Part shown: positions 1,167 through 18,536 of the stretch, piece by piece
Layout of the letters: each line of letters starts with the position of its first letter
Numbering within the stretch: position 1 is the stretch's first letter
From: Candidatus Methanophagales archaeon
GTDB taxonomy: Archaea > Halobacteriota > Syntropharchaeia > Alkanophagales > Methanospirareceae
Direction: 5' to 3'
NCBI GenBank assembly: GCA_025435355.1
Contig: JANJFQ010000008.1
Span: 1-33,031, forward strand
Length of the DNA stretch: 33,031 bases
Program-made: the position numbers and the translations under genes
The notes under the pieces: model-generated
Told to the model about the DNA's origin: nothing
The model's database searches: none
Seen by the model: only the letters and a program-made list of their open reading frames with translations

Positions 1167-2114
1167 TGCGGCGAGCAGCCACTCTTGCCTTACGAATCTT
1201 GCAATTTAGGCTCGATAAACGTTTCAAAATTTATCGAAAATGGTGAAATAGACTGGGAAAGACTTGGAGAAGTGGTTTGGCTCTGCACGAGGTTCTTAGA
1301 CGACGTCATAGATGTGAACAAGTATCCGCTGCCGGAAATAGAGAAGATGACGAAGACGAACAGGAAGATAGGGCTTGGAATAATGGGATTTGCGGAACTG
1401 TTAATCCAACTTGGGATAGCGTATGATTCAAAGGATGCGCTTTCGATGGGTGAAAAGCTCATGCGATTCATCACAAATGAAGCACGGCGGTGTTCAACAG
1501 AGCTTGGGCTTGAAAAGACGTCTTTTCCTAACTTCGAACTCAGTGTTTGGTCTGCAGACGAGGCGATGCGAAATGCTACGGTAACTACTATCGCACCAAC
1601 GGGAACAATAAGTATAATTGCCGGATGCTCCAGTGGAATAGAGCCTTTATTCGCAGTTGCATTCGTTCGGAATGTAATGGGTGGAATGCTGGAGATAAAC
1701 AAACTGTTTGAGGAGATAGCGAAGGAAAGGGGCTTTTATAGTAAAGAATTGATAACAGGGATTGCTAAGTGCGGCTCGATACGGGATATTGATGGTATTC
1801 CCGCGGATGTTAAAAGGGTGTTTGTCACAGCGCTGGACATCGCACCGGAATGGCACGTGCGAATGCAAGCGGCGTTTCAGAAATACACGGATAATGCAAC
1901 TTCGAAAACAGTGAATCTGCGGAGCGATGCAACATGGGTGGATGTAAAGACAGTGTTTTTATTGGCGTATAAACTCAAGTGCAAAGGTATTACCGTTTAC
2001 CGGTATGGGAGTAAAAAGCAGGTTCTATCGCTGGAAGTTCCAAAGCTCATGCTTGAAGAATACGTATGCGCAGATTCGGAATACACGGGCGAGTGCAGGA
2101 TTTGCTCAGTGTAA
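1..2114 (+). CDS. nrdJ: Class II (adenosylcobalamin-dependent) ribonucleotide reductase, 3' part, intein-containing
   Basis: Reduces ribonucleotides to deoxyribonucleotides using a B12-generated thiyl radical. The frame is open to the window edge (codons from base 3 read GLIR before the first Met at 15), so the gene is partial and most of the N-extein lies upstream. The C-extein starts at the Cys encoded at 1167-1169 and reads CGEQPLLPYESCNLGSIN, the NrdJ active-site region. Further NrdJ marks are NATVTTIAPTGTISI, the CKGITVYRYGS segment and a C-terminal CRIC pair that would re-reduce the active site. About 315 C-extein residues fit the family C-terminal half. The +1 Cys corresponds to the thiyl-radical Cys of the N-x-C-x-E motif, so unspliced protein must be inactive. 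The numbering of the full protein cannot be given from here. Confidence 0.93.
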   Translation, partial: GLIRMEEIAKKYSEGGIKIATDNRVPIKISDKDGNIYLMQMNRGGINFNSISEAFCSGSKEVYRLRTKSGYELEATGDHKVLTNEGWIELIELDPAKHRVLIQSCEGEFGENYRLPVEVNKSNLPEKWSKELGHVLGWLIGDGWLRAGDENCRVGFSFSEEDKEELGHLKGIINSWYGYGIKEIRRENGIYHLSYHSKYFVDFFMRLGVRPVKAKEKEVPESIFNAPREAVVGFLQGLFSADGIIRDSRKSNSDWLALTSKSLKLLKETQILLINLGIKSRIFNRSRPERKDLFEYITKGGEARTYGSDGVLYELGIFGRNLDEFGKEVGFISSDKTNRLNNIRPKKRRKVNFTDKIESITKVGKRRVYDLTEPITHSMICQGIVVHQCGEQPLLPYESCNLGSINVSKFIENGEIDWERLGEVVWLCTRFLDDVIDVNKYPLPEIEKMTKTNRKIGLGIMGFAELLIQLGIAYDSKDALSMGEKLMRFITNEARRCSTELGLEKTSFPNFELSVWSADEAMRNATVTTIAPTGTISIIAGCSSGIEPLFAVAFVRNVMGGMLEINKLFEEIAKERGFYSKELITGIAKCGSIRDIDGIPADVKRVFVTALDIAPEWHVRMQAAFQKYTDNATSKTVNLRSDATWVDVKTVFLLAYKLKCKGITVYRYGSKKQVLSLEVPKLMLEEYVCADSEYTGECRICSV

Positions 2115-2216
2115 CGTCACTATACGCCGTACTGAAGGGCTTGTCCCATAATTGGATATTTTCCAAAATCTTATTTTCCGATACAAATCTCTATTTGTGG
2201 TTATTTAAATCCGATT

Positions 2217-3017
2217 TCATTTTCTCCTTCTCAAAAGATAAGCTACGGCTAATAATGCCACAGTTGCTGTGATTATTTGGTAAGCTGGGATTGAAGTATT
2301 GGAGGGGGAAGAAACAGCAGGATTAATTTGTGGTAGAGACGTTGTTGAAGTTACTGGATTAGGTGTGTCGGATTGATTTGAAGGCATTTGATCGGACTTA
2401 AGCTCTGGCCTCTCAACTTTTATTGTAAATGCGGATATTGTGTTTTTGTAACATTTACCCTCAACAACGACTTTGTCATCTAGTTTTACATCATCCATTT
2501 CAACACCAGATAATACCACGTTAATCTCCCCAGTATCATCGTTAATCACTAACTCTGTTTTTTCATGCGTGAGTACTATTTTACTTATATCCCCTTTTAC
2601 ACGTATGGAATTACCATAATAATATTCTGGGAATTCTTTGAGCTCTGCAATGGTTGTGTCTTTGTATCCACGCTCTGCATCTGAGCTAAATTTATCTGCA
2701 TAGATCATGCCCTTGCCTACATATATCCCTGTTACCGTAATCTTTTGGTGTCCATAAGGAATTTCGAGAAGCCTTGCATCATATTTGACAGCTATTGTGC
2801 CTGATCCATCATCTATTGTTAGGACATACTTGTGTTCCGGCGCAGAACTTATACTTCCGACATCACCAGACACTGTCACCGCTTTATGGATATATGAATC
2901 ATTTATGCGGGCAATGGGGATTATATCCGCACATACAACTGGTATAAGCACAGCCATAGCTATTATGACCATGACGATTGTCTCGATTTGTGTTTTAAAG
3001 ATAGTTTTAGACCGCAT
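2217..3017 (-). CDS. Exported OB-fold protein with C-terminal membrane anchor
   Basis: Unnamed surface protein of 266 residues. It starts with a signal peptide (MRSKTIFKTQIETIVMVIIA and following residues, ending near VVCAD). Two beta-rich segments follow, about 35-115 and 125-205, each with the DDGSGTI or DDTGEIN turn typical of OB-fold nucleic-acid or ligand-binding modules. A Ser/Thr/Pro/Asn-rich linker (about 208-240) leads to PAYQ, a hydrophobic helix and RRRK, which resembles archaeosortase-processed PGF-CTERM-type tails. The start is supported by GGGGTTAGG just upstream of ATG. It is convergent with nrdJ and followed by a hypothetical membrane gene on the same strand. Function is unknown; extracytoplasmic binding is an inference from the folds and anchor. 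Confidence 0.75.
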   Translation of the reverse strand: MRSKTIFKTQIETIVMVIIAMAVLIPVVCADIIPIARINDSYIHKAVTVSGDVGSISSAPEHKYVLTIDDGSGTIAVKYDARLLEIPYGHQKITVTGIYVGKGMIYADKFSSDAERGYKDTTIAELKEFPEYYYGNSIRVKGDISKIVLTHEKTELVINDDTGEINVVLSGVEMDDVKLDDKVVVEGKCYKNTISAFTIKVERPELKSDQMPSNQSDTPNPVTSTTSLPQINPAVSSPSNTSIPAYQIITATVALLAVAYLLRRRK

Positions 3018-3280
3018 CCTAACCCCTGTGTAATGAAGATGCTTTTTTAATCTTAAACCTTTCGAAATATTAACATCAACTTACTAATATCCACAATTTT
3101 TCTTTCATATGCTTCCGCTCACTTTTTAGGTGTATTTTCCAGGCTAAGAGTTCATACTCGCTTTTATAACTTATCTAAACCGATAACAGGATAAAAATAA
3201 AAAACGATGATAGCTACCTTGAATGTTACTCGGGCTATGCATACCTCTTTTACATTCAATATGTTCCCGCAGCAGACGCA

Positions 3281-3802
3281 TTATTGCCCTCGTTGGATTC
3301 TATTTTTTTCGGCGGGCTCAATTCCTTCTTTTCCTAAAATATACAATAGAACTATTAATATACTAAATAGACCTATTAATACATATTTTACGCTTATTAT
3401 TCCCGTAAAAAGGAATGCAATTAAAATCATACTACCAGCAAAAACACCTGTTAATGCAGAAGCAGCAATAAAATAAGTAATAAGCTTTTCGCCGAACTTA
3501 AAGTCATCTATTTCTCTAAAGCCTTTATGGTATTTACTCAATCTCAGACGGCGGTGATAAATCCCTCCGATTGATTCCACAGCTATTTTACTCGTCCAGA
3601 TATAACCAACAAGAATTAATAAGTTGTGGAGTATTTCATGATGATAATAAGCAAAAAAACACAGAACAGAAATATAAAGGATAATTTTTGAAGGTCGCCA
3701 ATACTTTTCAAATGCACTCATTTCATCTGAGCGTCCAAACTTTATTCTCGCTTGATACCAGAATTCCGCTTTAAAAGGCTCTAAAAATTCTTTCTCCTTC
3801 AT
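3281..3802 (-). CDS. Hypothetical membrane protein
   Basis: 173 residues, family not recognised. Hydrophobic segments lie at about 37-57, 58-76, 108-130 and 136-155. The N-terminus is charged and soluble (MKEKEFLEPFKAEFWYQARI) and the C-terminus is charged. A strong ribosome-binding site (GAGGTGA) sits 6-7 bases upstream of the ATG, supporting a real gene. It is divergent from leuB with about 105 bp of shared upstream DNA. The 263 bp between it and the OB-fold gene hold no convincing gene. Confidence 0.6.
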   Translation of the reverse strand: MKEKEFLEPFKAEFWYQARIKFGRSDEMSAFEKYWRPSKIILYISVLCFFAYYHHEILHNLLILVGYIWTSKIAVESIGGIYHRRLRLSKYHKGFREIDDFKFGEKLITYFIAASALTGVFAGSMILIAFLFTGIISVKYVLIGLFSILIVLLYILGKEGIEPAEKNRIQRGQ

Positions 3803-3867
3803 ATATTCACCTCATCGTAATACCGTGATTTAAAGAAAAACAAATTTCTTTTAATTAGTAAAGTTTT

Positions 3868-3902
3868 TTTCATTAATAAACGGTTTTGGTGCATTAATGA
3901 AA
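3868..3902. promoter_or_regulatory. 10-bp inverted repeat directly upstream of leuB
   Basis: TTTCATTAAT (3868-3877) is repeated inverted as ATTAATGAAA (3893-3902) with a 15-base spacer. The right arm ends 5 bases before the leuB ATG, covering the place of its ribosome-binding site. It could be a dimeric repressor operator or an RNA hairpin that hides the translation start; sequence alone does not decide. A similarly spaced repeat (9 bp, 15-base spacer) sits before the gene at 13143-13811. Confidence 0.5.
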
Positions 3903-3907
3903 GAAAG

Positions 3908-5047
3908 ATGAAACAAGGATATAAGATCGCGGTAATTCGCGGCGATGGTATAGGGGCAGAGATATTAAGCGAAGGAGAAAAGGTGCTTGAAGCGGTTTCG
4001 GAACTCGAGGACTTTGAGCTCGAATGGATAGAATATCCGCATGGTGCAGAGCATTACTTGATGACCCGCGAGTTAATGGGTGAGGATACGCTAAAAGAGT
4101 TGGAACGGTGTGATGCGATATATTTCGGGAGCATAGGCGACCCGAGAGTAGAACCAGGCGTTTTAGAGCAGGGTATTTTGCTCACGCTCCGGTTCTATTT
4201 CGATCAATATGTAAATCTGAGACCGGTGAAGCTTCTGGAAGGCGTTCGCACACCGCTGGCGGGTAAGCGACCCGAAGATATAGATTTTAGTGTGGTCCGT
4301 GAGAACACAGAGGATTTCTATGTCGGCATTGGCGGCAGGGTAAAAGGGAATGGAAAAAAGAGGGATGAGCTGGAAATCGAAAGGAAGCTTTATAATATTA
4401 AATTCGGGCTGGACATCGAGACCGATGCAGACGAGCTCGCATATCAAATTGGTGTCGTGACGAGGGCTGGCTGCGAGCGCGTTATGAAGTTTGCATTTGA
4501 GCTTGCGAGGTCGAAGGGTAAGAAGAAGGTGACGAGTGTGGACAAGGCGAACGTGTTAACGCATAGCTATGGTTTGTGGAGGGAAATTTTTAACGAAGTT
4601 GCACGGGCATATCCTGAGATGGATACCGAGTTTAATTTCGTGGATGCGATATGCATGTGGCTCGTTAAGAATCCAGAATGGTATCAGGTTGTGGTTACGC
4701 CAAACATGTTTGGAGATATAATTACCGACCTAGGTGCGATGATTCAAGGCGGTTTGGGGCTTGCACCGGGAGCGAACATAAATCCGGATGGCGTTTCCAT
4801 GTTCGAGCCTATTCATGGCTCCGCACCGAAATATAAAGGTAAAGGCATTTCAAATCCGGTAGCCACGATCTGGGCAGGTGCTATGCTTCTGGAGACCGTG
4901 GGAGAGAAAAGTGCATCGGAAAAAGTTTTGGATGCAATCGAAGCGGTTTTAAAGGAAGGTAAGGTGAGGACATACGATCTTGGTGGGAACTCGAAGACGA
5001 GTGAGGTTGGTGATGCGATTGTTAGCGAGATTAGGAGGCAGGATTGA
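3908..5047 (+). CDS. leuB: Isopropylmalate/isocitrate-type beta-decarboxylating dehydrogenase, probably 3-isopropylmalate dehydrogenase
   Basis: Oxidative decarboxylation of a 2-hydroxy-dicarboxylate, in leucine synthesis if LeuB. 379 residues, normal length. Motifs are GDGIG (12-16), [12 protein letters not shown] (129-140) in the substrate loop, catalytic VDKANVL (Lys213), metal ligands in [12 protein letters not shown] (Asp270, Asp274) and [15 protein letters not shown] (303-317) in the coenzyme site. leuC (8340) and leuD (11483) on the same strand support the leucine assignment, though they are not contiguous with it. The stretch [11 protein letters not shown] with RENTED also resembles the D-malate/tartrate branch. 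Lys308-Tyr309 sit where NAD-dependent enzymes usually have Asp-Ile and match the NADP signature of E. coli isocitrate dehydrogenase, so coenzyme use is open. The start is the first Met after the inverted repeat. Confidence 0.85.
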
Positions 5048-5085
5048 TAGATTTAAAGTTTTTTATTTTTTATTCCGGTTTTAGA

Positions 5086-6492
5086 TCATAGTTTTTCGAG
5101 TTCTTGTCTGTATATTTCCATGAATTTCAGGAAGGAGTCACGGTATTGCTCTTCTAAATTCGATTCGTAGTCTTGAATCGCAGTCTTGACGATTGCTCCG
5201 CTTAAAATTGTTAATTCTGCAAGAGACTCCGCTGCTTGCTTTGTCGCTGCTTCAAGACCTTTTTCCGTAGCAGTTCTTCCAACATCTCCAAGAGACTCCG
5301 CTGCTTGTACTGTCGCATCCCCGAGTCTTTTCTCCGCAACAGCTTTTCCAACATCTCCAAGAGACCGTGCTATTTGTTTTGTTATTCCTCCAAGTCCTTT
5401 TTCCGCGGTTGATTTCCCGAATTGTCCAAGATACAGTGCAGCATGCCGTGCCGTCTTTTCAAGACCTTTTTCCGTAGCAGTTACTCCAACAGCTTCAAGA
5501 GACTCTAATGCTCGCAATGTTGCAACTACAAGACCTTTTTCCGCAGCAGCGTTTCCAACAGCTTCAAGAAACTCTGCTGTTAGCGCAGTTGCATATTCAA
5601 ATCCTTTTTCTGCTGTTGATCTCCCGAATTTCTCTAAATTTTCAATAACTTCTGAGGTTGATTCGTCATCCGCTCTGCTTGCAGCGAATCTGCTGACTCG
5701 ATGCAGATGATCACAAAAACGATCTGAGATCTTCACTTCACCATCTGAATCAATAACTTTGATTATCCGATCAGTTACTGCTTTTAACCCAACCCTTGTC
5801 GTCTCAATGTCATATTTCATGATTGAACCGTGCACTATATCCATGACGGGTTGAATTGAGTCTTCTTTCGAGTTTAAAAGGTTATCTTTGGTAATCTCAA
5901 TTGTCAATCGGTTTATAATACTTTCCGGCTTTAAAAGATCCATAATATTCCGCATATACGGAATTAGTACAACAAACGTGAATGCCCCAAGCCAATATGC
6001 TATGGAAACATAAGACTCAAACGAGATAGATACGCGACCAACAGACCAGATAGCACTTTGACTCACTAATTCACCTTCTGCCCCTTCCACAAGTTTCAAT
6101 ACGAGTAACCCATAGAATATCGATATCCCGTAACAAGCCAAAAGTATCCACATATCTAGATTCTTTTTGAATATATCAATTACTCGTGGCGAATACGCGG
6201 ATGCGGTGAGTTGAACTGCAATCAAGGTTAGTGATATAACGATGGCAACGATTGCCGCCTGACTCTGAACCAATGCGCTGAGCATGTATCTCGCACTGTC
6301 GACATCGGTATGGAAAAGATTTAAATGACTAAAATTGAGATAAAAGGCTAAAGAAAACAACAAAAGAAGAAAACCGTACACAAAGATGCGTTTAAGCCAC
6401 CGTGCAGCCCACAGATGTCTGGATTCCCAATCACGCACTTTCTTCTTGATGGTTTTCACAAACCCCTTAAAAATCTCTTTTCCATCTTGCAT
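5086..6492 (-). CDS. DUF2254-like membrane protein with tandem 23-residue cytoplasmic repeats
   Basis: 468 residues, role unknown. The N-terminal half resembles DUF2254: a basic N-terminus, then membrane segments near 35-55, 66-90, 106-126 and 160-182. Between the second and third is the family-like string VQLTASAYSPRVIDIF. A soluble region (185-280) follows, then six tandem 23-residue repeats (285-422) of the type SLxxVGxxxxEKGLxxATxQAAE, and a charged C-terminal helix. The repeats are predicted helical and probably stack as a solenoid or lengthen a coiled coil. Convergent with leuB, with a T-rich 38-bp gap between them. The upstream gap 6493-6670 has only a weak 37-codon frame on the other strand. 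Confidence 0.7.
   Translation of the reverse strand: MQDGKEIFKGFVKTIKKKVRDWESRHLWAARWLKRIFVYGFLLLLFSLAFYLNFSHLNLFHTDVDSARYMLSALVQSQAAIVAIVISLTLIAVQLTASAYSPRVIDIFKKNLDMWILLACYGISIFYGLLVLKLVEGAEGELVSQSAIWSVGRVSISFESYVSIAYWLGAFTFVVLIPYMRNIMDLLKPESIINRLTIEITKDNLLNSKEDSIQPVMDIVHGSIMKYDIETTRVGLKAVTDRIIKVIDSDGEVKISDRFCDHLHRVSRFAASRADDESTSEVIENLEKFGRSTAEKGFEYATALTAEFLEAVGNAAAEKGLVVATLRALESLEAVGVTATEKGLEKTARHAALYLGQFGKSTAEKGLGGITKQIARSLGDVGKAVAEKRLGDATVQAAESLGDVGRTATEKGLEAATKQAAESLAELTILSGAIVKTAIQDYESNLEEQYRDSFLKFMEIYRQELEKL
5227..5640 (-). repeat. Six in-frame 69-bp coding repeats
   Basis: Tandem units of 69 bp encode 23-residue repeats whose conserved core is (A/T)EKGL at the same register in every copy except one (EKRL). 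The two copies nearest the 3' end of the gene are the most alike, sharing the block complementary to TCTCCAAGAGACTCCGCTGC, which suggests the array grew there most recently. The strict 69-bp spacing inside an open frame rules out a CRISPR array. Confidence 0.85.
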
Positions 6493-6670
6493 ACAAACAA
6501 AATAATCATGAAGTATTTTAAAATTTCGCCCTAATTTGTAGTTAATAGATTTCGGTGCAAAAACTTACCATAATCTCGGCATGTGTATGAACTTATGGGC
6601 GATAAAGAAAAGGCGGAGGAGAATTTTGAGAAGGCGAAAGTGCTAGAGGCAGATATTTACCACCATTGGG

Positions 6671-7063
6671 TCACGGTGTGTGATCTGCTATATCTTCAAG
6701 TTTGCTGAGTTCTCTTTTCCTGAAGCCTATGAAAATACCACCTAATTTACCACCAACTAAAGTTCTCGTCTTTTCGCCATCTTGAAGCACTCTGTTAAGT
6801 AAGGGATGAATGATTTTCACTTCATCGCTCTTTTCAGTTATAATCTGTATCCCGTTTTCAATTCCTTCAATCCGGGCAAAAGTCTTTGCTTTTGGAGGAA
6901 TTATGCTGTTAAGCTTGGGATGCTCGATGTCGAGATGCGTTACGGTAGCGCGCGAATAACCCTTAAGATGGATATAAACATTCACGTCTGCCAGTTCTTC
7001 TGAGCGAAGGTAAACTTTTGCATCCAGTGCCAATTTGCCTTCTGCGGGGCCGGTCATGCTCAT
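6671..7063 (-). CDS. Conserved-looking hypothetical protein
   Basis: 130 residues, not recognised. No signal peptide or membrane segment. It alternates predicted strands (AKVYLRSEELADVNVYIHLK, ATVTHLDIEHPKLNSII, KTFARIEGIENGIQIITE, EVKIIHPLLNRVL) and ends in a basic helix, so it is probably a small beta-rich cytoplasmic protein. The ATG at 7063 has no strong ribosome-binding site, but an AT-rich TATA-like run (7070-7085) lies close upstream, so a leaderless transcript is possible. Met3 is an alternative start. Confidence 0.5.
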   Translation of the reverse strand: MSMTGPAEGKLALDAKVYLRSEELADVNVYIHLKGYSRATVTHLDIEHPKLNSIIPPKAKTFARIEGIENGIQIITEKSDEVKIIHPLLNRVLQDGEKTRTLVGGKLGGIFIGFRKRELSKLEDIADHTP

Positions 7064-7208
7064 CAGAGTTTATAATATTTAATGAGATTTTTGAGGTGGC
7101 TATAACGTTAGGGATTAGAATCACAGACTCTTTATATCGTTTATATACCTCCCAACTTTCTTAAGCTCTATTTTCACCGTTGCGGTGCCAAGTATCCCTT
7201 CATAGAAC

Positions 7209-7577
7209 TTACTTCGACAAAAGTTCCTTCCAAAGCTGCGGAAGAATCTCTGCTGCCTTTCCGCGAATTGAGAGCGTAACCAAAGGAGTTATCGGGGTTG
7301 GTTCACGATTGACCTCTATAACGGTAGCTCCCTTTTTAAGTGCTATTAAAGGAAATTCACGAGCTGGGGAAACTACTGCTGAGGTTCCTATAACCAAGAA
7401 AAGGTCAGCACGAGCGCTTGCAGTTAGAGCGGCATTTAGTGTCTTCTCATCCTCCCACATCGAGCCCTTACCTCTGAAAATTGGCACTCCACTCTCGGCT
7501 GATATACCTGCACCTGTAAGGACCGCAACGCGTAATTTGGGGTCAAGTATTAAGTGTAATCTGTCAATGAGTCCCAT
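7209..7577 (-). pseudogene. Sir2 (sirtuin) with large internal in-frame deletion
   Basis: Sirtuins are NAD-dependent protein deacylases of about 240-250 residues; this reads only 122. The N-terminal NAD-binding motif TGAGISAESGVPIFRG (21-36) is intact and is followed by KGSMWED. At about residue 44 the sequence jumps to the distal part, ARADLFLVIGTSAVVSPA (55-72), GATVIEVN (83-90) and GKAAEILPQLW (107-117). Missing are the QNID motif, the catalytic His and the four-Cys zinc ribbon, roughly 120 residues. The frame is preserved, so a short protein could be made, but deacylase activity is not expected. It lies at the edge of a zone with other deleted genes. An assembly artefact cannot be excluded. 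Confidence 0.8.
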
Positions 7578-7647
7578 GTTTTTCCATCTATCTTTTTATT
7601 ACAAAAAGAAAATGTTTATGTTCCTAAGAAGGAATTACTAAAAACAT

Positions 7648-7905
7648 ATGAATCCCGAACAAGCAAAGGAGAGGGCAAGAGCACTTCTTAACGTGATTGA
7701 AACCATGTATGAAATACAGATTACTAATTTAGAGGAAGTTATCGAGGCTATAATTAAAAAAACACTCGATGAGATTAAGATATTAACGATTTGTACCGCT
7801 TTAAATTCATGGCTTGCAATGAATGCTGCACTGACCGGGGAAGTCGAGATACCGAGCGAGGTTGTGAACGGATTAACGGAGAGGATGCTGTGCACAGATA
7901 ATTAA
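7648..7905 (+). CDS. Small hypothetical helical protein
   Basis: 85 residues, not recognised. Predicted all-helical and acidic: NPEQAKERARALLNVIETMY, then EEVIEAIIKKTLDEIKI and a small hydrophobic helix ICTALNSWLAMNAALTG. No signal peptide. AAGGAA lies about 14 bases before the ATG, a weak ribosome-binding site. The opposite strand is open over the same span but encodes an improbable Ser/Ile-rich product, so the plus-strand reading is preferred. It is followed at once by the receiver-domain stub. Confidence 0.5.
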   Translation: MNPEQAKERARALLNVIETMYEIQITNLEEVIEAIIKKTLDEIKILTICTALNSWLAMNAALTGEVEIPSEVVNGLTERMLCTDN

Positions 7906-7969
7906 TCTGCCCAAAAATTCGTGGAATTTTGACCCGCTAATTGCTCGAACTACACAAGATTTTGAGCAA

Positions 7970-8167
7970 TTGCTACATCATAATTTTAAAATCACACCAG
8001 TATTATCCGCGGAGCAGGCATTAGAAAGATTGGAAAAGGAAACTTTTGATGTCGTTGTTGCTGATTACGCGATGCCTGGAATGAATGGGCTCGAATTTCT
8101 GGGAGAACTGAGGAAGAAAGGAAACGATATTCCTTTTATTATCGCTCCGTATTTGTATGGCACTTAG
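7970..8167 (+). pseudogene. Response-regulator receiver domain, truncated
   Basis: The frame reads NFKITPVLSAEQALERLEKE, then FDVVVADYAMPGMNGLEFLG and GNDIPFII. This is the middle of a CheY-like receiver domain, with the phospho-acceptor Asp in VVADYAMPG. The N-terminal strand and acidic pair (usually VDDE) are not recognisable upstream although the frame stays open, and the domain stops after strand 4, so the conserved Lys and last helix are missing. No ATG is present; the first possible start is TTG at 7970. Read as a fragment of a former regulator or hybrid kinase. Confidence 0.7.
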
Positions 8168-8339
8168 AAAATACTAAATCCTAAGCTCTAAGTATAGTTT
8201 CTCTAATGACTCGAAGATCATCAATGATCCGTTGTAACTCTCCTGCTTCAATAAATTTAAATCATTAAACTCGAAATCATGAACAAATCCAAACGGCCAG
8301 AAACCATAAATATACAGAATGACTATAAATTAATGCGAA

Positions 8340-9572
8340 ATGCCTACGATAGCGGAAAAAATACTGAGTGGAATGGCAGGTGAAATCGTTGAATGCGAAG
8401 TGGATTACATAATGGTGAACGATGTAACTGGCGTGCCGGCTTTTGAAGTCTTCGAGAAGCTTGAGCGGGGGATGAAAAAGGAGAAAGTAGTGGTGATACA
8501 GGACCATTATGTTCCAAACAAGGATGTGGCTTCCGCGGAACAGGCGAACGCATTGCGGAACTATGCCCGGAGATACGGGATTGAGAATTATTACGAGATA
8601 GGGAAAGGGGGGGTATGCCATCAGGTAATGATAGAGGAAGGATTTGCTGCACCGGGAAGGTTAATAATAGGTGCGGATTCACATACCTGCTCTTATGGCG
8701 CACTGGGCGCTTTTTCCACTGGTGTCGGCTCGACAGAGGCGGCAGCGGCAATGGCTACCGGGAGATTGTGGTTTAAAGTTCCAGCAACACAGAAGTTTGT
8801 GATTAACGGTGATTTGAAGAGATACGTGATGGGGAAGGATATAATTCTGCATGTCATTGGCGACATAGGCGTTTCGGGTTCTCTATACAACTCACAGGAG
8901 TTTTATGGCACCGCAATAAACAATTTAAACCTTTCCGACCGCATAACGATCTCGAACATGACAGTGGAAGCGGGTGCGAAGGCAGGGATTATTCCTCCTG
9001 ACGAGAAGGTCTTCGATTTCCTGCGTGGTAGGGTAAGAGGAGAATATAAAGCGGTTTATGCCGACACTGGAAGTGAATACGAGGAAGTATTCGAGTATGA
9101 TGCATCGGAGATAGTTCCAACGGTTGCAAAACCATTCTCTCCTGATAATACCGTGCCTGCAAGCGAATTGGACGTTCCTATTGACCAGGCGTATTTAGGG
9201 TCTTGCACAAATGGTAGAATTGAGGATTTACGGGTTGCTGCAGAGATATTGAGAGGTAAAAAGGTGAATACCGAAGCGCGGATGATTGTAGTGCCAGCGA
9301 GTGAGAATGTATTCAAGCAGGCGATAGAAGAGGGTTTGATTCAAATTTTTCTTGAGGCTGATGTTTTTGTCTGTGGTCCCACCTGTGGCGCATGTTTGGG
9401 CGGACACATGGGCGTTCTTGCAAAAGGTGAAAAATGCATAAGCACAACGAACCGAAACTTTATCGGGCGAATGGGGCATAAGGATTCAGAGGTTTATTTA
9501 GCGAATCCCGCGGTAGTTGCAGCTTCGGCAATTAAAGGACGAATAACCGACCCGGCGGAGTTGGGGATATGA
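8340..9572 (+). CDS. leuC: 3-isopropylmalate dehydratase (homoaconitase-type) large subunit
   Basis: With LeuD, isomerises 2- and 3-isopropylmalate; archaeal paralogues do the homoaconitase step of coenzyme B synthesis, so substrate is not fixed by sequence alone. 410 residues, standard archaeal length. Motifs are IIGADSHTCSYGALGAFSTG (109-128) in the substrate site and the three [4Fe-4S] ligands, Cys289 in GSCTNGR and Cys349 and Cys352 in CGPTCGACLGGHMG. No Shine-Dalgarno is obvious; ATAAATATA at 8306-8314 lies about 30 bases before the ATG, which fits a leaderless archaeal transcript. Intact, although flanked by remnants of signalling genes. Confidence 0.92.
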   Translation: MPTIAEKILSGMAGEIVECEVDYIMVNDVTGVPAFEVFEKLERGMKKEKVVVIQDHYVPNKDVASAEQANALRNYARRYGIENYYEIGKGGVCHQVMIEEGFAAPGRLIIGADSHTCSYGALGAFSTGVGSTEAAAAMATGRLWFKVPATQKFVINGDLKRYVMGKDIILHVIGDIGVSGSLYNSQEFYGTAINNLNLSDRITISNMTVEAGAKAGIIPPDEKVFDFLRGRVRGEYKAVYADTGSEYEEVFEYDASEIVPTVAKPFSPDNTVPASELDVPIDQAYLGSCTNGRIEDLRVAAEILRGKKVNTEARMIVVPASENVFKQAIEEGLIQIFLEADVFVCGPTCGACLGGHMGVLAKGEKCISTTNRNFIGRMGHKDSEVYLANPAVVAASAIKGRITDPAELGI

Positions 9573-9915
9573 ATATAAAGTCAACGTAACACAATTCCTG
9601 AGGCATGCATTTATCAACGTTCTCGACAATGCGATAAAGTATAGTCCCCCCGGCACAGTAGTTGAAATCGGTATCACGGACCAGAGTAAAAAGTGGAAGA
9701 TATGCATAAAAGACCAGGGAGAAGGTGTTTCTGATGAGTCGAAGCAGAAAATATTCGATAGGTTCGTGCGCGGAGTAGAGAGTGGAATTAAATGCAGTGG
9801 AATCGGGCTTGCAATCGCTAAGACCGCTGTAATGCAGAACAAGGGAAGGATTTGGGTTGAAGACAATCCCGAGGGAGGGGCGGTGTTTTGCATCGCTTTG
9901 CCAAAATGGAAATAG
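9547..9915 (+). pseudogene. Histidine-kinase HATPase_c domain without N-terminus or start codon
   Basis: Reading from 9571 the frame gives FLRHAFINVLDNAIKYSPPG (N box), IKDQGEGVSDESKQKIFDRF (G1 and F box) and SGIGLAIAKTAV (G2), ending ALPKWK at the stop 9913-9915. This is a complete kinase ATP-binding domain of about 115 residues. A stop lies at 9544, and there is no Met until the last third, so no start is visible. The sensor and His-phosphorylation domains are absent. The frame overlaps the end of leuC. It ends inside the start of the phosphatase remnant (ATG at 9906), an overlap typical of coupled genes. Confidence 0.8.
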
Positions 9916-10179
9916 TAGCAATCTCAAGACCAAAACCGGGAGAGGATGTTAATGGCGATGCATACCTCGATGAGTGGCGTGCTTGGCTGGAACCTGAGAA
10001 AGGTAAAAGAGTTCAAATACGACTTCCACGCCGGATGGCTCGTCATGAACTCAGACGGAATCGGCAGGTTCAGCGCTTCTGAATACGCATCGGATGATTT
10101 ACATGCGATGGCAGCAAAAATACAGAATGAGCATGGCAAGGACAACGATGACGCAACTGTCGTGGTAGTAAGAAGTTAA
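9906..10179 (+). pseudogene. SpoIIE/PP2C-type phosphatase, internally deleted and frameshifted
   Basis: From ATG 9906 the frame reads MEIVAISRPKPGEDVNGDAY, the N-terminus of SpoIIE-family Ser/Thr phosphatases with a metal-binding Asp. It then loses homology. In the next frame, from about 9970, the C-terminal part follows: GVLGWNLRKVKEF, FHAGWLVMNSDGIGRFSASE and DNDDATVVVVR. Roughly 100-150 residues between GDA and GVLG are missing and the two ends are out of frame. In partner-switching systems such phosphatases pair with HATPase-type kinases, and the overlap with the kinase remnant at 9913-9915 fits a former operon. A 77-codon frame (9946-10179) could still be translated. Confidence 0.72.
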
Positions 10180-10251
10180 TTACATCCCCATCGTCAAAAG
10201 TTTTGCCTGTCAATCGAAAGTTTTAAATAGTATAACAATTACGGTGAAAGT

Positions 10252-10770
10252 ATGGATGAAAAAATCTTAAAGGCTGTTCTCTCTGCAATTCCGACGATTT
10301 TACTCGTTGTGTGCGTTGTAGCGGCATTTGCGACACATGACTGGAATGTGCAAGCTGCCCTCTTCTCCGAAGACCCACTGGAAATAGTGGAAAAGATATT
10401 ACCTTCTGAGATTGGTGCAGAAGAAGAATTTTTAAACGTCACAGGTTTTGAGATTTCTGAGGACTGGAGCAAGTTTACTATCGAAGCTGTGCTCAATTCG
10501 CCGTTGAACGTGCCAATAGAAATAAAAGAGATGTCGGCTGAAGCTACTCTGGCTGATAGCATCGTTACCATAAGCTTGCCGAACGAGGTAGAAATTCCTG
10601 CGAAGGGCTCAGCGAACTTGAAGTTGGAAGGGGCGCTTCCTGAGGTACAAGCGCAAATGCCACCCACTTCGCCATTTGAGGAAAACTTAACACTTCGCAA
10701 CATGAAGATGAAGTTAGACATCAGCGGGATAGAGCTGGAAATAGAAGAATCAGGACTGGGAGGTCAATGA
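10252..10770 (+). CDS. Membrane-anchored exported protein with LEA14-like beta domain
   Basis: 172 residues. An N-terminal membrane segment (AVLSAIPTILLVVCVVAAFA, 8-27) acts as anchor or signal. The remainder is beta-rich: FEISEDWSKFTIEAVLNSPL, then IEIKEMSAEATL and a strand-rich IPAKGSANLKLEGAL segment. The pattern recalls LEA14/WHy domains, a tentative match. GGTGA just before the ATG and TTTTAAATAG about 25 bases upstream support the start. It is followed after 3 bases by another membrane gene behind a GGAGGT site, so the two form an operon. Function unknown. Confidence 0.6.
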   Translation: MDEKILKAVLSAIPTILLVVCVVAAFATHDWNVQAALFSEDPLEIVEKILPSEIGAEEEFLNVTGFEISEDWSKFTIEAVLNSPLNVPIEIKEMSAEATLADSIVTISLPNEVEIPAKGSANLKLEGALPEVQAQMPPTSPFEENLTLRNMKMKLDISGIELEIEESGLGGQ

Positions 10771-10773
10771 AAA

Positions 10774-11424
10774 ATGCAAATATCAAAATGCAAAATAATA
10801 CATGGTGGTGTCCCCGGATTGATGTCTGAAACGATTCTGGAGTGGGCGGGATGGCGAAAGGTAAACTGGCCTGGAGTCATTGCAGGTGCGCTTGTGATTG
10901 CACTGCCCTTTCTGGGGACGTGGTGGCAATTCATGCTCGGCACGGAAGCAGTAACCATGTCGCTCTCGCCGTTCGGAGTGGAGATGAGCATTTTCGGTGA
11001 AGCGATAAGTTCGCCACTCTTCTGGTGGGTCTGTCTCGGTCTTAAGCTCGGTGTTGTGTATCTCGGCGTGCTTCTGATAGCAGGCTCAGTGCTGTCGTTT
11101 TCGGAGCGGTATGCGGTGATTGCGGAGCAGTTCGTGCATCTCAGCGCAAGAAAGCTGTTATGGCTTGTCGTAGCGTTTGTTGCTATGTTGCTCATCGTCA
11201 TCGTGCTTATGAATCAGTCCTCGGGGCTGTTCGGGCTTCCATTTCAGTTACAACTGCCTTATCTCGTCGGCAAAAGCTCAGTCAGTGCAGGGGTGGAGGG
11301 CATGCGTCTTGCCACCGCAATCTCCATGAACTTCACGCAAGCATTCGCAGTAGCAGTGCTCGCTGCTGCACTTGGAATCGTTGCAAGCGTTTACCAGAAA
11401 AAGCTTTATCCGAAGGAGCAGTAA
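10774..11424 (+). CDS. Polytopic membrane protein, hypothetical
   Basis: 216 residues with about four membrane segments: VIAGALVIALPFLGTWW, the VCLGLKLGVVYLGVLLIAGS region, LLWLVVAFVAMLLIVIVLM and AFAVAVLAAALGIVASVY. Family not recognised. GGAGGT (10759-10764) nine bases before ATG 10774 supports this start; a second in-frame Met, followed by SETILEW at 10822, is the likelier first residue of the conserved part. The first codons lie in AAATGCAAATATCAAAATGC, a string like short dispersed repeats in related genomes. The operon with the preceding exported protein suggests they act together at the membrane. Confidence 0.6.
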   Translation: MQISKCKIIHGGVPGLMSETILEWAGWRKVNWPGVIAGALVIALPFLGTWWQFMLGTEAVTMSLSPFGVEMSIFGEAISSPLFWWVCLGLKLGVVYLGVLLIAGSVLSFSERYAVIAEQFVHLSARKLLWLVVAFVAMLLIVIVLMNQSSGLFGLPFQLQLPYLVGKSSVSAGVEGMRLATAISMNFTQAFAVAVLAAALGIVASVYQKKLYPKEQ

Positions 11425-11482
11425 ACATTATCGAAAGGGTTTATCTGGTAAAGCGTTCTTTTTTAAAAAAAGTTTGTTTAAC

Positions 11483-11968
11483 ATGAGAATCTGGAAATTT
11501 GCGGATAATATAGATACGGACCAGATAATTCCTGCGGAATATCTGACGACCGGGGATGCGAAGAAACTTGCAGCTAATGCCTTCGCTAAAGTGCGGCCGG
11601 AATTTTCAAAAGAAGTGAAAGAAGGCGATATTATCGTGTCAGGCGAAAATTTCGGCTGCGGCAGTTCGAGAGAGCATGCACCTCGTGCATTGCTCGGTGC
11701 GGGTATAAGTTGCGTGATTGCAAAGAGTTTTGCACGAATCTTCTTCAGAAATTCCATAAATATCGGGTTGCAGTTGCTCGAAGCTGATGTCTTTGACAGG
11801 ATAGAAGAACGGGATGAAATAGAAATAAATTTTGAAGATGGTGTGATAATGAATCATACAAAAAAGGAGGACTACAAATTCAAACCGCTGCCGGAATTTA
11901 TGCAGAAGCTATTGGAAAGCGGGGGATTGATTCCATATATTAAAATGCAGAACTCTCATTTAAGATAG
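11483..11968 (+). CDS. leuD: 3-isopropylmalate dehydratase small subunit
   Basis: Partner of LeuC; supplies the swivelling substrate-binding domain. 161 residues from ATG 11483, normal for archaeal LeuD. Motifs are FADNIDTDQIIPAEYL (6-21) at the N-terminus and GENFGCGSSREHAPRAL (54-70), the substrate-recognition loop. An in-frame upstream Met at 11372 would add 37 residues from another frame of the previous gene and is rejected. The gene lies about 1.9 kb from leuC, separated by decayed genes and a membrane-protein pair. Its 3' end overlaps the convergent U32 gene by 13 bp. Confidence 0.9.
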   Translation: MRIWKFADNIDTDQIIPAEYLTTGDAKKLAANAFAKVRPEFSKEVKEGDIIVSGENFGCGSSREHAPRALLGAGISCVIAKSFARIFFRNSINIGLQLLEADVFDRIEERDEIEINFEDGVIMNHTKKEDYKFKPLPEFMQKLLESGGLIPYIKMQNSHLR

Positions 11969-12957
11969 GTTAATGCCTCCTTTGTGAGTGCACCACAATA
12001 TCCACATTCATTGCATATTTTTTTACAGCTCTTCCATTTTTCTATGCTCCCCGCAAGCTTTTCATTCTCTATATAAAACATATACCGGAGCATTTGAGGA
12101 CAATCCAGGAGTTCGAGCAAGTTCCCTTCGAACGACCTCTTAGAATATATCCTCATGCAATCTATTATCCAGTTCACCGTTTTCGTCCTTCCGGAAAGCT
12201 TGAAGTTCTTTATTCCTATCGCTTCATATTCTTTTAAATCCTCCGGTCTTATCCATGCTGACTTTATTATCTGTGTGGGGTCCCTCAGGCGGATGTTTAT
12301 GCATTTATCAAAATAGAAGTCAGGAGCGAATAGAGGAGCGCGTGGTTGGTTTAAACTGCTGAGATGCGAGGCGAGGTTGTAATGCGAGTACCGGAAAGGA
12401 CACCTGTAAAGACAGCCTTCGTTCACTATCAGCCTTATTTCACACTTAACAGCCTTTACCATTCCTTCTAACAGAGAGAAGTGCCGGTTTATGTTCGTGT
12501 CCACGGTTATCACATCGGCACCAAGGTCTTCAAAGAATTTGGCACGTTGTGGAGCATCAACATAAGATAAACAGGATACAACGGTCTGCATTGGGAACTC
12601 ACGAAGTAGCTCCGCGAGGTATGGCTCTGCCACCGTAACGGCGTCAACACCCACTTTGTTCAGTTCGCTGAAATACCACTCAAACATCTTATAGCCCTCG
12701 AATGTCAGGTGATGACCGCCAGTGCATGGCGAATTCATCACAACGTTCATTTTTATGCCGTGTTGATGCGCATATTCGGTTTGTTCCCTTATCTCGTCAA
12801 TGAGTGGCGCATGCAGCACACCTCTTCCACTTCCCATCACCTCTGGAGAGCCACCCATAAAGACCTCATCTACTTCGTTCAAGCCCTCTGCTTCTTTGAC
12901 TTCTATTATCTCCTTCAGAGCTTCAAAATGTCCCGGATGCGGAACCATTAATCGCAT
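11956..12957 (-). CDS. Peptidase U32 family protein (probable Fe-S hydroxylation-type enzyme)
   Basis: 333 residues. The N-terminal barrel begins MRLMVPHPGHFEALKEI, with VDEVFMGGSPE and KMNVVMNSPCTGG. The U32 signature region is NEGCLYRCPFRYSHYN, followed by FDKCINIRL. A Cys-rich C-terminus reads CKKICNECGYCG. Characterised U32 proteins (RlhA, TrhP, UbiU/UbiV) hydroxylate RNA or quinones and bind Fe-S clusters rather than acting as proteases; the Cys pattern fits that, but the substrate is unknown. The start is preceded by a GGGAT-type site, and the AT-rich TATAAATATA-like run near 13003-13013 may be the promoter. Convergent with leuD. Confidence 0.75.
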   Translation of the reverse strand: MRLMVPHPGHFEALKEIIEVKEAEGLNEVDEVFMGGSPEVMGSGRGVLHAPLIDEIREQTEYAHQHGIKMNVVMNSPCTGGHHLTFEGYKMFEWYFSELNKVGVDAVTVAEPYLAELLREFPMQTVVSCLSYVDAPQRAKFFEDLGADVITVDTNINRHFSLLEGMVKAVKCEIRLIVNEGCLYRCPFRYSHYNLASHLSSLNQPRAPLFAPDFYFDKCINIRLRDPTQIIKSAWIRPEDLKEYEAIGIKNFKLSGRTKTVNWIIDCMRIYSKRSFEGNLLELLDCPQMLRYMFYIENEKLAGSIEKWKSCKKICNECGYCGALTKEALTYLK

Positions 12958-17231: not shown

Positions 17232-17511
17232 GTGGCCAGACTTCAGATTTAAGCTTTTGAGGGATAGATTTCAGCATCTTAAAGAGTGGTGCCCTGATCA
17301 TCTGTGGGCGCCAAGTTGTTATCATGGGTCAGTGGGACAGGGATGGGAAGTGGTGGAGAAGTATATCTCAGGACAAAAGGGTTATAGTTACGAGAAAACG
17401 GATACTATACCCGTAGTTGTAATAGATGAGGAGAAAGAAAAAGCTCTCAAAACCGGGTATATAACTCTTTATACCAAATTTTTTGATAAACGTAATCTTT
17501 ATATCATCTAA
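17206..17511 (+). pseudogene. IS200/IS605-family Y1 transposase (TnpA), C-terminal remnant
   Basis: 101 codons. KLLRDRFQHLKEWCPDHLWA, then PSCYHGSVGQGWEVVEKYIS, match the last third of TnpA: the LWAPSYY-GSVG loop followed by the helix with the catalytic Tyr (Tyr53 here) in YIxxQ. The HUH motif and the first two thirds, normally about 90 residues, are absent. After GQKGYS the sequence (TIPVVVIDEEKEKALKTGYI) no longer resembles TnpA. The frame begins inside the end of moaE. It cannot transpose by itself. It marks a former insertion next to the toxin-antitoxin pair and the group II intron. Confidence 0.72.
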
Positions 17512-17528
17512 AATCTACATTATTTAAG

Positions 17529-17708
17529 ATGGCTGCTATAAAGAGGATACCTGTATCGCCAGAAATTTTGGAAGAGTTAAGTAGATTGAAAGAGCCTGAA
17601 CAAACTTTTGGTGAACTAATCGCGGGGATGATTGAAAGGGAGAAAAAGTTCAGGCTTCTGAAAGATATGAAAAGGATTGAAGAAACGGCAGAATTCGTGG
17701 AGATTTAG
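17529..17708 (+). CDS. Antitoxin of RelE-type pair
   Basis: 59 residues, too short for usual ORF cut-offs. IKRIPVSPEILEELSRLKEP, TFGELIAGMIEREKKFRLLK and a charged tail resemble small helical or ribbon-helix-helix archaeal antitoxins (RelB/VapB-like). It would bind its own promoter and neutralise the toxin. The stop (17706-17708) is one base from the toxin ATG, typical for such operons. An AT-rich run before the ATG (TTTATATCAT near 17499-17508) is a plausible promoter. Confidence 0.75.
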   Translation: MAAIKRIPVSPEILEELSRLKEPEQTFGELIAGMIEREKKFRLLKDMKRIEETAEFVEI

Positions 17709-17709
17709 G

Positions 17710-17991
17710 ATGTACAGCGTTCTTATAAACAGAGATGCTCAAAAATACGTGGATTCGCTTACTGAAAAGAGCAGGAGGTTGGTTAAGAAAAAGCTTGAAA
17801 TGCTGAAAGACAATCCGCATCCCGGAAGAGCAGACAAGAAGAAGTTGCAACTTCCAAATTACGACCTCTTCCGGATGCACGTAAGTCGAAGTTATACGAT
17901 ATTCTACCGAATTTACGAGGAGGAAAAGACCGTTAAGGTATTGAATATTATGACGATTGAAGAGGCACATAAGAAATATGGGATGCTTTAA
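17710..17991 (+). CDS. RelE/ParE-family toxin
   Basis: 93 residues from ATG 17710; an in-frame upstream extension lies in the antitoxin and is rejected. MYSVLINRDAQKYVDSLTEK, KKLEMLKDNPHPGRADKKKL, YDLFRMHVSRSYTIFYRIYE and VLNIMTIEEAHKKY match the RelE fold: N-terminal strand, two helices, then a beta sheet with basic residues (Lys/Arg in KKKL, FRMHVSRSYTI) that in RelE contact ribosome-bound mRNA. RelE members cut mRNA, ParE members poison gyrase; the YTIFYRI region favours RelE. Overlapping the antitoxin operon by spacing of one base. A hairpin and group II intron follow. Confidence 0.85.
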   Translation: MYSVLINRDAQKYVDSLTEKSRRLVKKKLEMLKDNPHPGRADKKKLQLPNYDLFRMHVSRSYTIFYRIYEEEKTVKVLNIMTIEEAHKKYGML

Positions 17992-18010
17992 AAAGGTCAA
18001 ATGGGATGCC

Positions 18011-18026
18011 TCGGAATTTATTCCGA
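18011..18026 (+). terminator. Palindromic hairpin after the toxin gene
   Basis: TCGGAATTTATTCCGA is a 7-bp stem with a 2-base loop (or 6 bp and 4 bases), 20 bases after the toxin stop and 10 bases before the likely 5' end of the group II intron. No long T tract follows. Group II introns of some classes insert just downstream of terminator-like hairpins, which may be what this shows. Confidence 0.4.
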
Positions 18027-18035
18027 TGGTGGACT

Positions 18036-18536
18036 GTGCCTCGTAGCCTAATCAGCCAGAGGGTTAAAATCCCTCCTGTGCTGTTTACCCGACAAACTTT
18101 CTTTCACAAGAAAGTTTGATCAAAATGCTTCGCTACGAGAAGTCGGACGGATTCATAGTAGCGATGATGTCGGTGCCTGTGAATGGCTGGTAACAGCCGG
18201 GAGGATAAAACGCCGACTAAGCCCTTACAGGGCTTGCGGGGTCGTGGGGCAGGGCCCCACATGCGAAGGAATCCTGCTTTGGCGAAACCGAACAATGGGT
18301 GAGATAGATGCGCAAATCAAGTAGGAAATTGGCGAAAGTAAGCTCAGGAGAAAGACGCCACGCTGATTGCCGAAATGGTTTGGGCATTGAAACAGCTTGT
18401 TGGAGGTTGGTGGGAAGAGTAGGTTGATCTCACTCCCTGTAATGGGGCAACGCCATCGGAGAGCCGTATACGGGAAATCCGTACGTGCGGTTCGATGAGG
18501 GGACGGAGGTCGAAAGACCTCCTCCTCCTCTGCGAC
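18036..18536 (+). ncRNA. ORF-less group II intron
   Basis: About 500 nt. Domain V is at 18461-18493: an 8-bp lower stem (GAGCCGTA with TGCGGTTC), a CG bulge on the 3' side, a 5-bp upper stem (TACGG with CCGTA) and a GAAAT loop, 33 nt against the canonical 34. Domain VI follows: a long stem 18497-18511 with 18516-18530 closed by GAAA. The 5' end is set at GTGCC (consensus GUGYG). Domain I parts include an 11-bp perfect stem (18093-18103 with 18108-18118), GTGGGGC/GCCCCAC and a GCGAAGGAATCCTGC segment familiar from group II introns. No reverse transcriptase or maturase is encoded; domain IV is reduced. A bulged branch-point A is not obvious in domain VI. Boundaries are accurate to several bases only. 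Mobility, if any, would need a protein supplied in trans. Confidence 0.82.

What the first reader, a model, noticed from the sequence alone, without database searches (positions are those of the whole stretch)
18036..18536. ORF-less group II intron in an archaeal genome
The window holds a compact ribozyme-like sequence with a near-canonical domain V (8-bp stem, CG bulge, 5-bp stem, 33 nt) and a domain VI stem but no reverse transcriptase. It would need a maturase in trans. It starts 10 bases after a 16-bp palindromic hairpin behind a RelE-type toxin, and it has a 5-nt domain V loop and no clear bulged branch-point A, so it may splice by hydrolysis or be dead.
Basis: seen in the sequence. Interest (0 to 1): 0.65.

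Follow-up and report, generated by a model that had tools for sequence, protein, structure and literature searches.

The report
Dead ORF-less intron in methane-eating archaeon
This is a broken, protein-less copy of a self-splicing mobile intron that jumped into the hairpin ending a mobile toxin-antitoxin unit in an ANME-1 (Methanophagales) archaeon; the copy itself looks dead, but it belongs to a sizeable, apparently undescribed archaeal intron family that inserts behind gene-end hairpins.

Summary
Window 18036-18533 is a group II intron copy. Rfam RF00029 hits 18459-18533 (45.5 bits, cut-off 40), and a paralogue in the same genome (82% identical) fixes both ends. The organism is a Methanophagales (ANME-1) archaeon. 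DNA matches lie in 34 of 59 searched genomes, nearly all in its family. I recovered 19 end-to-end copies: 16 lack the ORF and 3 carry a reverse-transcriptase/maturase reading frame (one truncated).

The 'compact ribozyme' reading is only partly right. About 300 nt of domain I, including the probable exon-binding loop (EBS1), are replaced by a 35-nt hairpin repeat. A second dispersed repeat sits inside 18219-18260. The branch-point A, kept in 37 of 38 copies scored, is C at 18527. The assembly (82% complete) holds no cognate maturase. The 5-nt domain V loop is family-wide, not a defect. The best reading is a dead remnant.

The upstream hairpin is the homing site: intron-free copies of it exist, one behind a 93%-identical toxin-antitoxin module. 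These hairpins end mobile, same-strand gene modules resembling integron cassettes, although no integron integrase passed its cut-off. That, with the dominance of ORF-less copies, is the interesting part; the window copy itself is ordinary decay.

The parts
18036..18533 (+). Group II intron remnant, 498 nt, ORF-less
   Evidence: RF00029 hit; paralogue in C122 82% identical, and 19 end-to-end copies, share both ends
18036..18089 (+). Retained 5' part of domain I (GTGCCTCGTA...TTTACC)
   Evidence: Up to 100% identical to the 5' ends of intact relatives
18090..18124 (+). AT-rich hairpin repeat standing in place of about 300 nt of domain I
   Evidence: Absent from intact copies; near-identical dispersed repeat elsewhere in the genome; two direct copies flank a domain I remnant in the C122 paralogue; fold z -5.5
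18125..18218 (+). Retained 3' end of domain I and start of domain II
   Evidence: Aligned without a break to all intact relatives
18219..18260 (+). REP-like double-hairpin repeat inserted in the domain II region
   Evidence: 16 copies in the own genome at up to 3 mismatches, reversed-pattern control 0; absent from the other aligned introns
18261..18458 (+). Domains II-IV; the ORF of relatives lies near 18419-18427 and is absent here
   Evidence: Alignment and the 1160-nt gap position in ORF-bearing relatives
18461..18493 (+). Domain V (33 nt, AGC triad, 5-nt loop)
   Evidence: Rfam match and fold
18497..18530 (+). Domain VI stem; branch-point position 18527 is C instead of A
   Evidence: Fold; 37 of 38 scored copies have A at -7
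18003..18035 (+). 5' half of the homing site: GGGATGC-hairpin-GTGG palindromic repeat
   Evidence: Intron-filled and intron-free copies in many loci
17529..17708 (+). Small ORF (59 aa), probable antitoxin of the module
   Evidence: Reading frame before and overlapping-operon position with the toxin; no family search of this ORF succeeded
17710..17991 (+). ParE/RelE-type toxin gene
   Evidence: PF05016, E 1e-8
17510..18032 (+). Mobile toxin-antitoxin plus hairpin module
   Evidence: 93-98% identical in G034:C76, G034:C165 and G011:C14 (part) in different surroundings; the first has an empty hairpin

Best explanation
18036-18533 is a degenerate, splicing-dead copy of an ORF-less group II intron from a family spread through Methanophagales (ANME-1). 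Shown: an intron copy lies at a fixed position behind the conserved end hairpin of a mobile toxin-antitoxin module; it lacks the ORF, most of domain I and the branch-point A, and carries two foreign palindromic repeats. Inferred: an intact ORF-less ancestor was copied into this site with a maturase supplied in trans, an AT-rich repeat entered domain I, and recombination between two direct copies of that repeat (still both present in the C122 paralogue) removed the domain I remnant. With no EBS1, no branch A and no cognate maturase in the assembly it should neither splice nor move. Being between genes, it can persist without harm.
For: Rfam match above the cut-off. Paralogue with both ends. Alignment showing the domain I loss, the repeat insertions and the branch A to C change (37 of 38 copies keep A). 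Intact ORF-less (722-750 nt) and maturase-bearing (1896-1944 nt) relatives at the same kind of site. Probable EBS1 loop lies in the lost segment: loop-exon pairing score 65.0 against a shuffled mean of 57.8, 117 of 5000 shuffles as good, with one copy (L112) that changed loop and target together. Intron-free copies of the homing site. Only one RT fragment in the own genome, 39% identical to the family maturase.
Against: Domains V and VI are almost unchanged, so decay is recent or incomplete. The assembly is 82% complete, so a trans-acting maturase could be missing from it. The deletion route through repeat recombination is inferred from one paralogue. No expression data exist.
Confidence: 0.88

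Rival explanations
1. A working ORF-less intron spliced (and perhaps still moved) by a maturase acting in trans.
For: 16 of 19 end-to-end copies in the family lack the ORF, and the most alike are up to 95% identical across different sites, so ORF-less copies probably do move with help. Domain V is intact.
Against: This copy lacks most of domain I with the probable EBS1, and the branch A. No cognate maturase in the assembly.
Confidence: 0.05
2. A streamlined, group III-like intron or an RNA exapted for another purpose, kept by selection in its reduced form.
For: Several copies in different genomes share an AT-rich insertion at the same place in domain I (L041 ORF-less copy, C122, L172), and domains V-VI are conserved.
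Against: The extent of the domain I loss differs among copies, none is fixed; the window copy has lost the branch A. Euglena group III introns keep DI and DVI motifs (PMC4424553), while this keeps domain V and loses domain I.
Confidence: 0.04
3. A chance domain V-like fold with no intron origin.
For: Only domains V and VI are in the Rfam model, so domains I-III get no model hit.
Against: Full-length nucleotide relatives with the same ends, maturase-bearing versions, and a fixed insertion site.
Confidence: 0.005

Closest known systems
ORF-less group II introns of archaea and bacteria (reviewed in PMC4424553; original archaeal reports not held, known to me by title)
   Same: Group II ribozyme domains, no ORF in domain IV, related maturase-bearing introns in relatives.
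   Different: In bacteria ORF-less introns are called rare (PMC4424553); here they are the majority of recovered copies. The window copy also lacks most of domain I.
Group IIC (class C) introns, which insert after terminator hairpins
   Same: Insertion a few nt behind a DNA hairpin at many sites; short pairing to the 5' exon; maturase without an endonuclease domain; the best solved relatives of the maturase are MarathonRT and GsI-IIC RT.
   Different: Domain V has an AGC triad, not the CGC given for IIC (PMC7923331); the intact RNA without ORF is 722-750 nt; the hairpins are a conserved repeat with a fixed tail, not T-run terminators. Class not settled.
Group IIC-attC introns of integrons, and the same-strand IIB (CL1) intron behind an attC site (PMC7923331)
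   Same: Home to the recombination-like hairpin at the end of gene cassettes.
   Different: Same strand as the genes; target GTGGNNN|GGTTGGGGCTT rather than TTGT/T; the hairpins lack attC R boxes; no integron integrase over the cut-off.
Archaeal integrons (PMC9668308)
   Same: Arrays of short same-strand genes separated by hairpins, rich in toxin-antitoxin genes.
   Different: Non-attC-like hairpins and no IntI found; a text search of the paper for ANME or Methanophagales gave nothing.

Membership tests
Group II intron (functional) | Domain V | tested here: met
   RF00029 45.5 bits, cut-off 40
Group II intron (functional) | Domain VI with bulged branch-point A | tested here: not met
   Stem present; C at 18527 where 37 of 38 scored copies have A
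Group II intron (functional) | Domain I with EBS1 | tested here: not met
   About 300 nt missing against intact relatives
Group II intron (functional) | Defined 5' and 3' ends at a target site | tested here: met
   Shared ends in 19 copies; empty sites. The 3' GC instead of AC occurs in 13 other copies too
Group II intron (functional) | Intron-encoded protein in cis or trans | tested here: inconclusive
   None in cis; no cognate one in an 82%-complete assembly; intact ones in relatives
Group II intron (functional) | Splicing | not testable with these tools
   No RNA data
Group IIC | Insertion just after a hairpin | tested here: met
   Most of the listed sites
Group IIC | CGC catalytic triad | tested here: not met
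   Domain V reads GAGCCG or GAGCAG, an AGC triad, in aligned copies; criterion from PMC7923331
Group IIC | Class C maturase | tested here: inconclusive
   Best solved relatives are class C enzymes, but classes D, E and F were not compared and no tree was built
IIC-attC | Insertion in attC bottom strand at TTGT/T, opposite to the cassettes | tested here: not met
   Same strand, different target
Integron cassette array (for the homing sites) | attC R boxes RYYYAAC and GTTRRRY | tested here: not met
   41 sites: GTTGGGG in place of GTTRRRY, no positioned R'' box
Integron cassette array (for the homing sites) | IntI integrase | tested here: not met
   TIGR02249 over its cut-off in 0 of 12 genomes; best 135 bits against 265
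Group III intron | About 90-120 nt with DI and DVI motifs | tested here: not met
   498 nt, keeps domain V and loses domain I

The most novel reading that the evidence does not exclude
Methanophagales carry integron-like arrays of mobile gene modules whose 3' hairpins (GGATGC-variable stem-GTGGNNWGGTTGGGGCTT) are recombination sites of an unknown system, and a dedicated group II intron family, mostly ORF-less and driven in trans, uses these hairpins as homing sites.
Probability: 0.35. Interest if true: 0.75.

Novelty: new member of a known kind. Interest (0 to 1): 0.4.

Why it matters
The window copy by itself is a relic. Its family matters more. ORF-less introns are described as rare in bacteria, yet here they are most of the recovered copies, a natural case of trans-mobilised introns in archaea. 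The family inserts behind hairpins, which the literature ties to class C, while its domain V triad is not of the class C type. The hairpins mark the ends of mobile gene modules in methane-oxidising archaea, which would be a gene-capture system if confirmed.

Tried and rejected
Chance domain V: rejected by full-length relatives. Group III-like streamlining: rejected, since domain I loss is not uniform and the branch A is gone. The maturase fragment in C181 as the helper: rejected as cognate, 39% identity and only part of the RT domain. A protein-coding origin of the homing repeat (a short ORF with a Shine-Dalgarno-like stretch precedes some copies): rejected by eye, since 40- and 41-nt versions shift the frame and stems change with compensation. 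attC identity of the hairpins: no R boxes, no IntI over the cut-off. No match in the phage collection, and no exact match to the domain V stretch in viral contigs. Only the domain V region and nearby bases match in plasmids. A nearby bacterial relative (Sulfobacillus thermotolerans pY0017) sits behind the truncated end of a gene rather than after an obvious hairpin.

Full report
What is there. Rfam's group II intron model (domains V and VI) matches window 18459-18533 at 45.5 bits, above its cut-off of 40, and the stretch folds far better than its shuffles (z -5.8). The genome (G000, 2.16 Mb in 227 contigs, 82% complete) has five such matches. One of them, in contig C122, belongs to a copy 82% identical to the window sequence, from GTGAC at the 5' end to CTCTGC at the 3' end. 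An alignment with relatives places the window copy at 18036-18533.

Where it occurs. A search with the window intron found matches in 34 of 59 relatives, nearly all in the same family; some of those matches are only the nested repeat described below. A scan of named genomes for the domain V stretch gave 32 contigs, whose titles are mostly Methanophagales or ANME-1, others Methanosarcinales or unplaced archaea. From the fetched loci I recovered 19 end-to-end copies: 16 of 258-884 nt without an ORF and 3 of 1896-1944 nt with one. The ORF is a group II reverse transcriptase/maturase (TIGR04416, 424.5 bits against a cut-off of 300; RVT_1 and GIIM domains). It is intact at 424 aa in L041 and 386 aa in L112, and truncated in L079. 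Its best solved relatives are MarathonRT and GsI-IIC RT. The L041 contig carries a maturase-bearing copy and, 0.9 kb downstream, an ORF-less copy that still holds the tail of the maturase gene, so ORF-less copies can arise by deletion.

What is wrong with this copy. Intact ORF-less relatives are 722-750 nt long. The window copy keeps their first 54-56 nt, then jumps to the end of domain I; about 300 nt are missing (relative positions 57 to roughly 355-380). In their place is a 35-nt hairpin repeat (18090-18124). The C122 paralogue holds two direct copies of this repeat around a leftover piece of domain I; recombination between two such copies would give the window arrangement. That step is inferred. 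A second repeat (18219-18260), present in 16 copies in this genome, lies in the domain II region. Position 18527 is C where 37 of 38 scored copies have the bulged A; one further copy, L026, also reads C in the flank listing. The 5-nt domain V loop is found in intact copies too, so it is not a defect.

EBS1. In intact copies a variable loop inside domain I (CCTCC-loop-GGGGAAG) can pair with the last nucleotides of the 5' exon. Across 13 copies the summed pairing score is 65.0 against a shuffled mean of 57.8, with 117 of 5000 shuffles as good. This is modest, since most targets are alike; the telling case is L112, where a different target (TGATCCGAAGC) goes with a different loop (TTTGGATA). This loop lies in the segment that the window copy has lost.

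Homing site. Most copies sit behind a hairpin. The commonest site is a repeat: GGATGC, a stem of about 8 bp whose sequence varies with compensation, GTGG, two or three free bases, then GGTTGGGGCTT. Introns lie after the free bases, before the GGTTGGGGCTT part. Intron-free copies are common (reversed-pattern controls zero). In G034:C76 the toxin-antitoxin module that precedes the window intron is present at 93% identity with an empty hairpin. A second site type is the very repeat that is nested in the window intron, which other introns have split (L055, L105). L112 sits behind a hairpin in a transposase-like gene.

Hairpin-ended modules. The hairpins lie shortly after stop codons of same-strand genes and come in runs at 0.3-2.4 kb spacing. 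G011:C85 has six, between HicBA, RHH-PIN and other short genes. The window's toxin-antitoxin module (17510-18032) recurs, whole or in part, in three other places with other neighbours, and in two of them it begins directly behind another hairpin. This looks like an integron cassette array, but the hairpins lack attC R boxes and no integron integrase passed its cut-off in 12 genomes. I therefore call them integron-like only.

Verdict. The sequence is a remnant of an ORF-less group II intron, not a working compact ribozyme. A trans-acting maturase may exist outside the assembled 82%, but with domain I and the branch A gone it would have little to work on. The class is open: hairpin targeting and the nearest solved maturases point to class C, the AGC triad in domain V does not.

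Noticed in passing
L172 (G011:C85) 1353-12640; L169; L159; L090; window 17510-18032: Runs of same-strand short genes and toxin-antitoxin pairs, each ended by a GGATGC-hairpin-GTGGNNWGGTTGGGGCTT repeat; modules recur in different surroundings, like integron cassettes without attC or IntI.
   Followed up: partly
window 18219-18260 and 15 other places in G000: REP-like double-hairpin repeat AAGCCCTTACAGGGCTTGCGGGGTCGTGGGGCAGGGCCCCAC, also in many relatives; it serves as a homing site for some introns and is itself nested in this intron.
   Followed up: partly
window 18090-18124; G000 C27, C122, C152, C190, C162, C7: AT-rich hairpin repeat CAAACTTTCTTTCACAAAGAAAGTTTGATCAAAG, found in domain I of several introns and elsewhere.
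   Followed up: partly
window 17330-17485: The 3' part of a 101-aa ORF with no Pfam match recurs in many loci at 70-87% identity, always ending at 17484-17486, including just upstream of the C122 intron.
   Followed up: no
L007 (G000:C181) 2802-3269 minus; L001, L002: A group II RT fragment of another lineage and further RF00029 matches in the same genome, so more than one group II intron family is present.
   Followed up: partly
L209 (G015:C85) 4-810; L210 (G005:C316) 2-703: Tyrosine recombinases weakly like integron integrases (up to 135 bits, gap over positions 179-233) on contigs that also carry copies of this intron.
   Followed up: no
L041 700-940: The maturase-bearing intron in G035:C189 lies near what reads as the start of an IS200-type transposase on the other strand (read by eye).
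   Followed up: no
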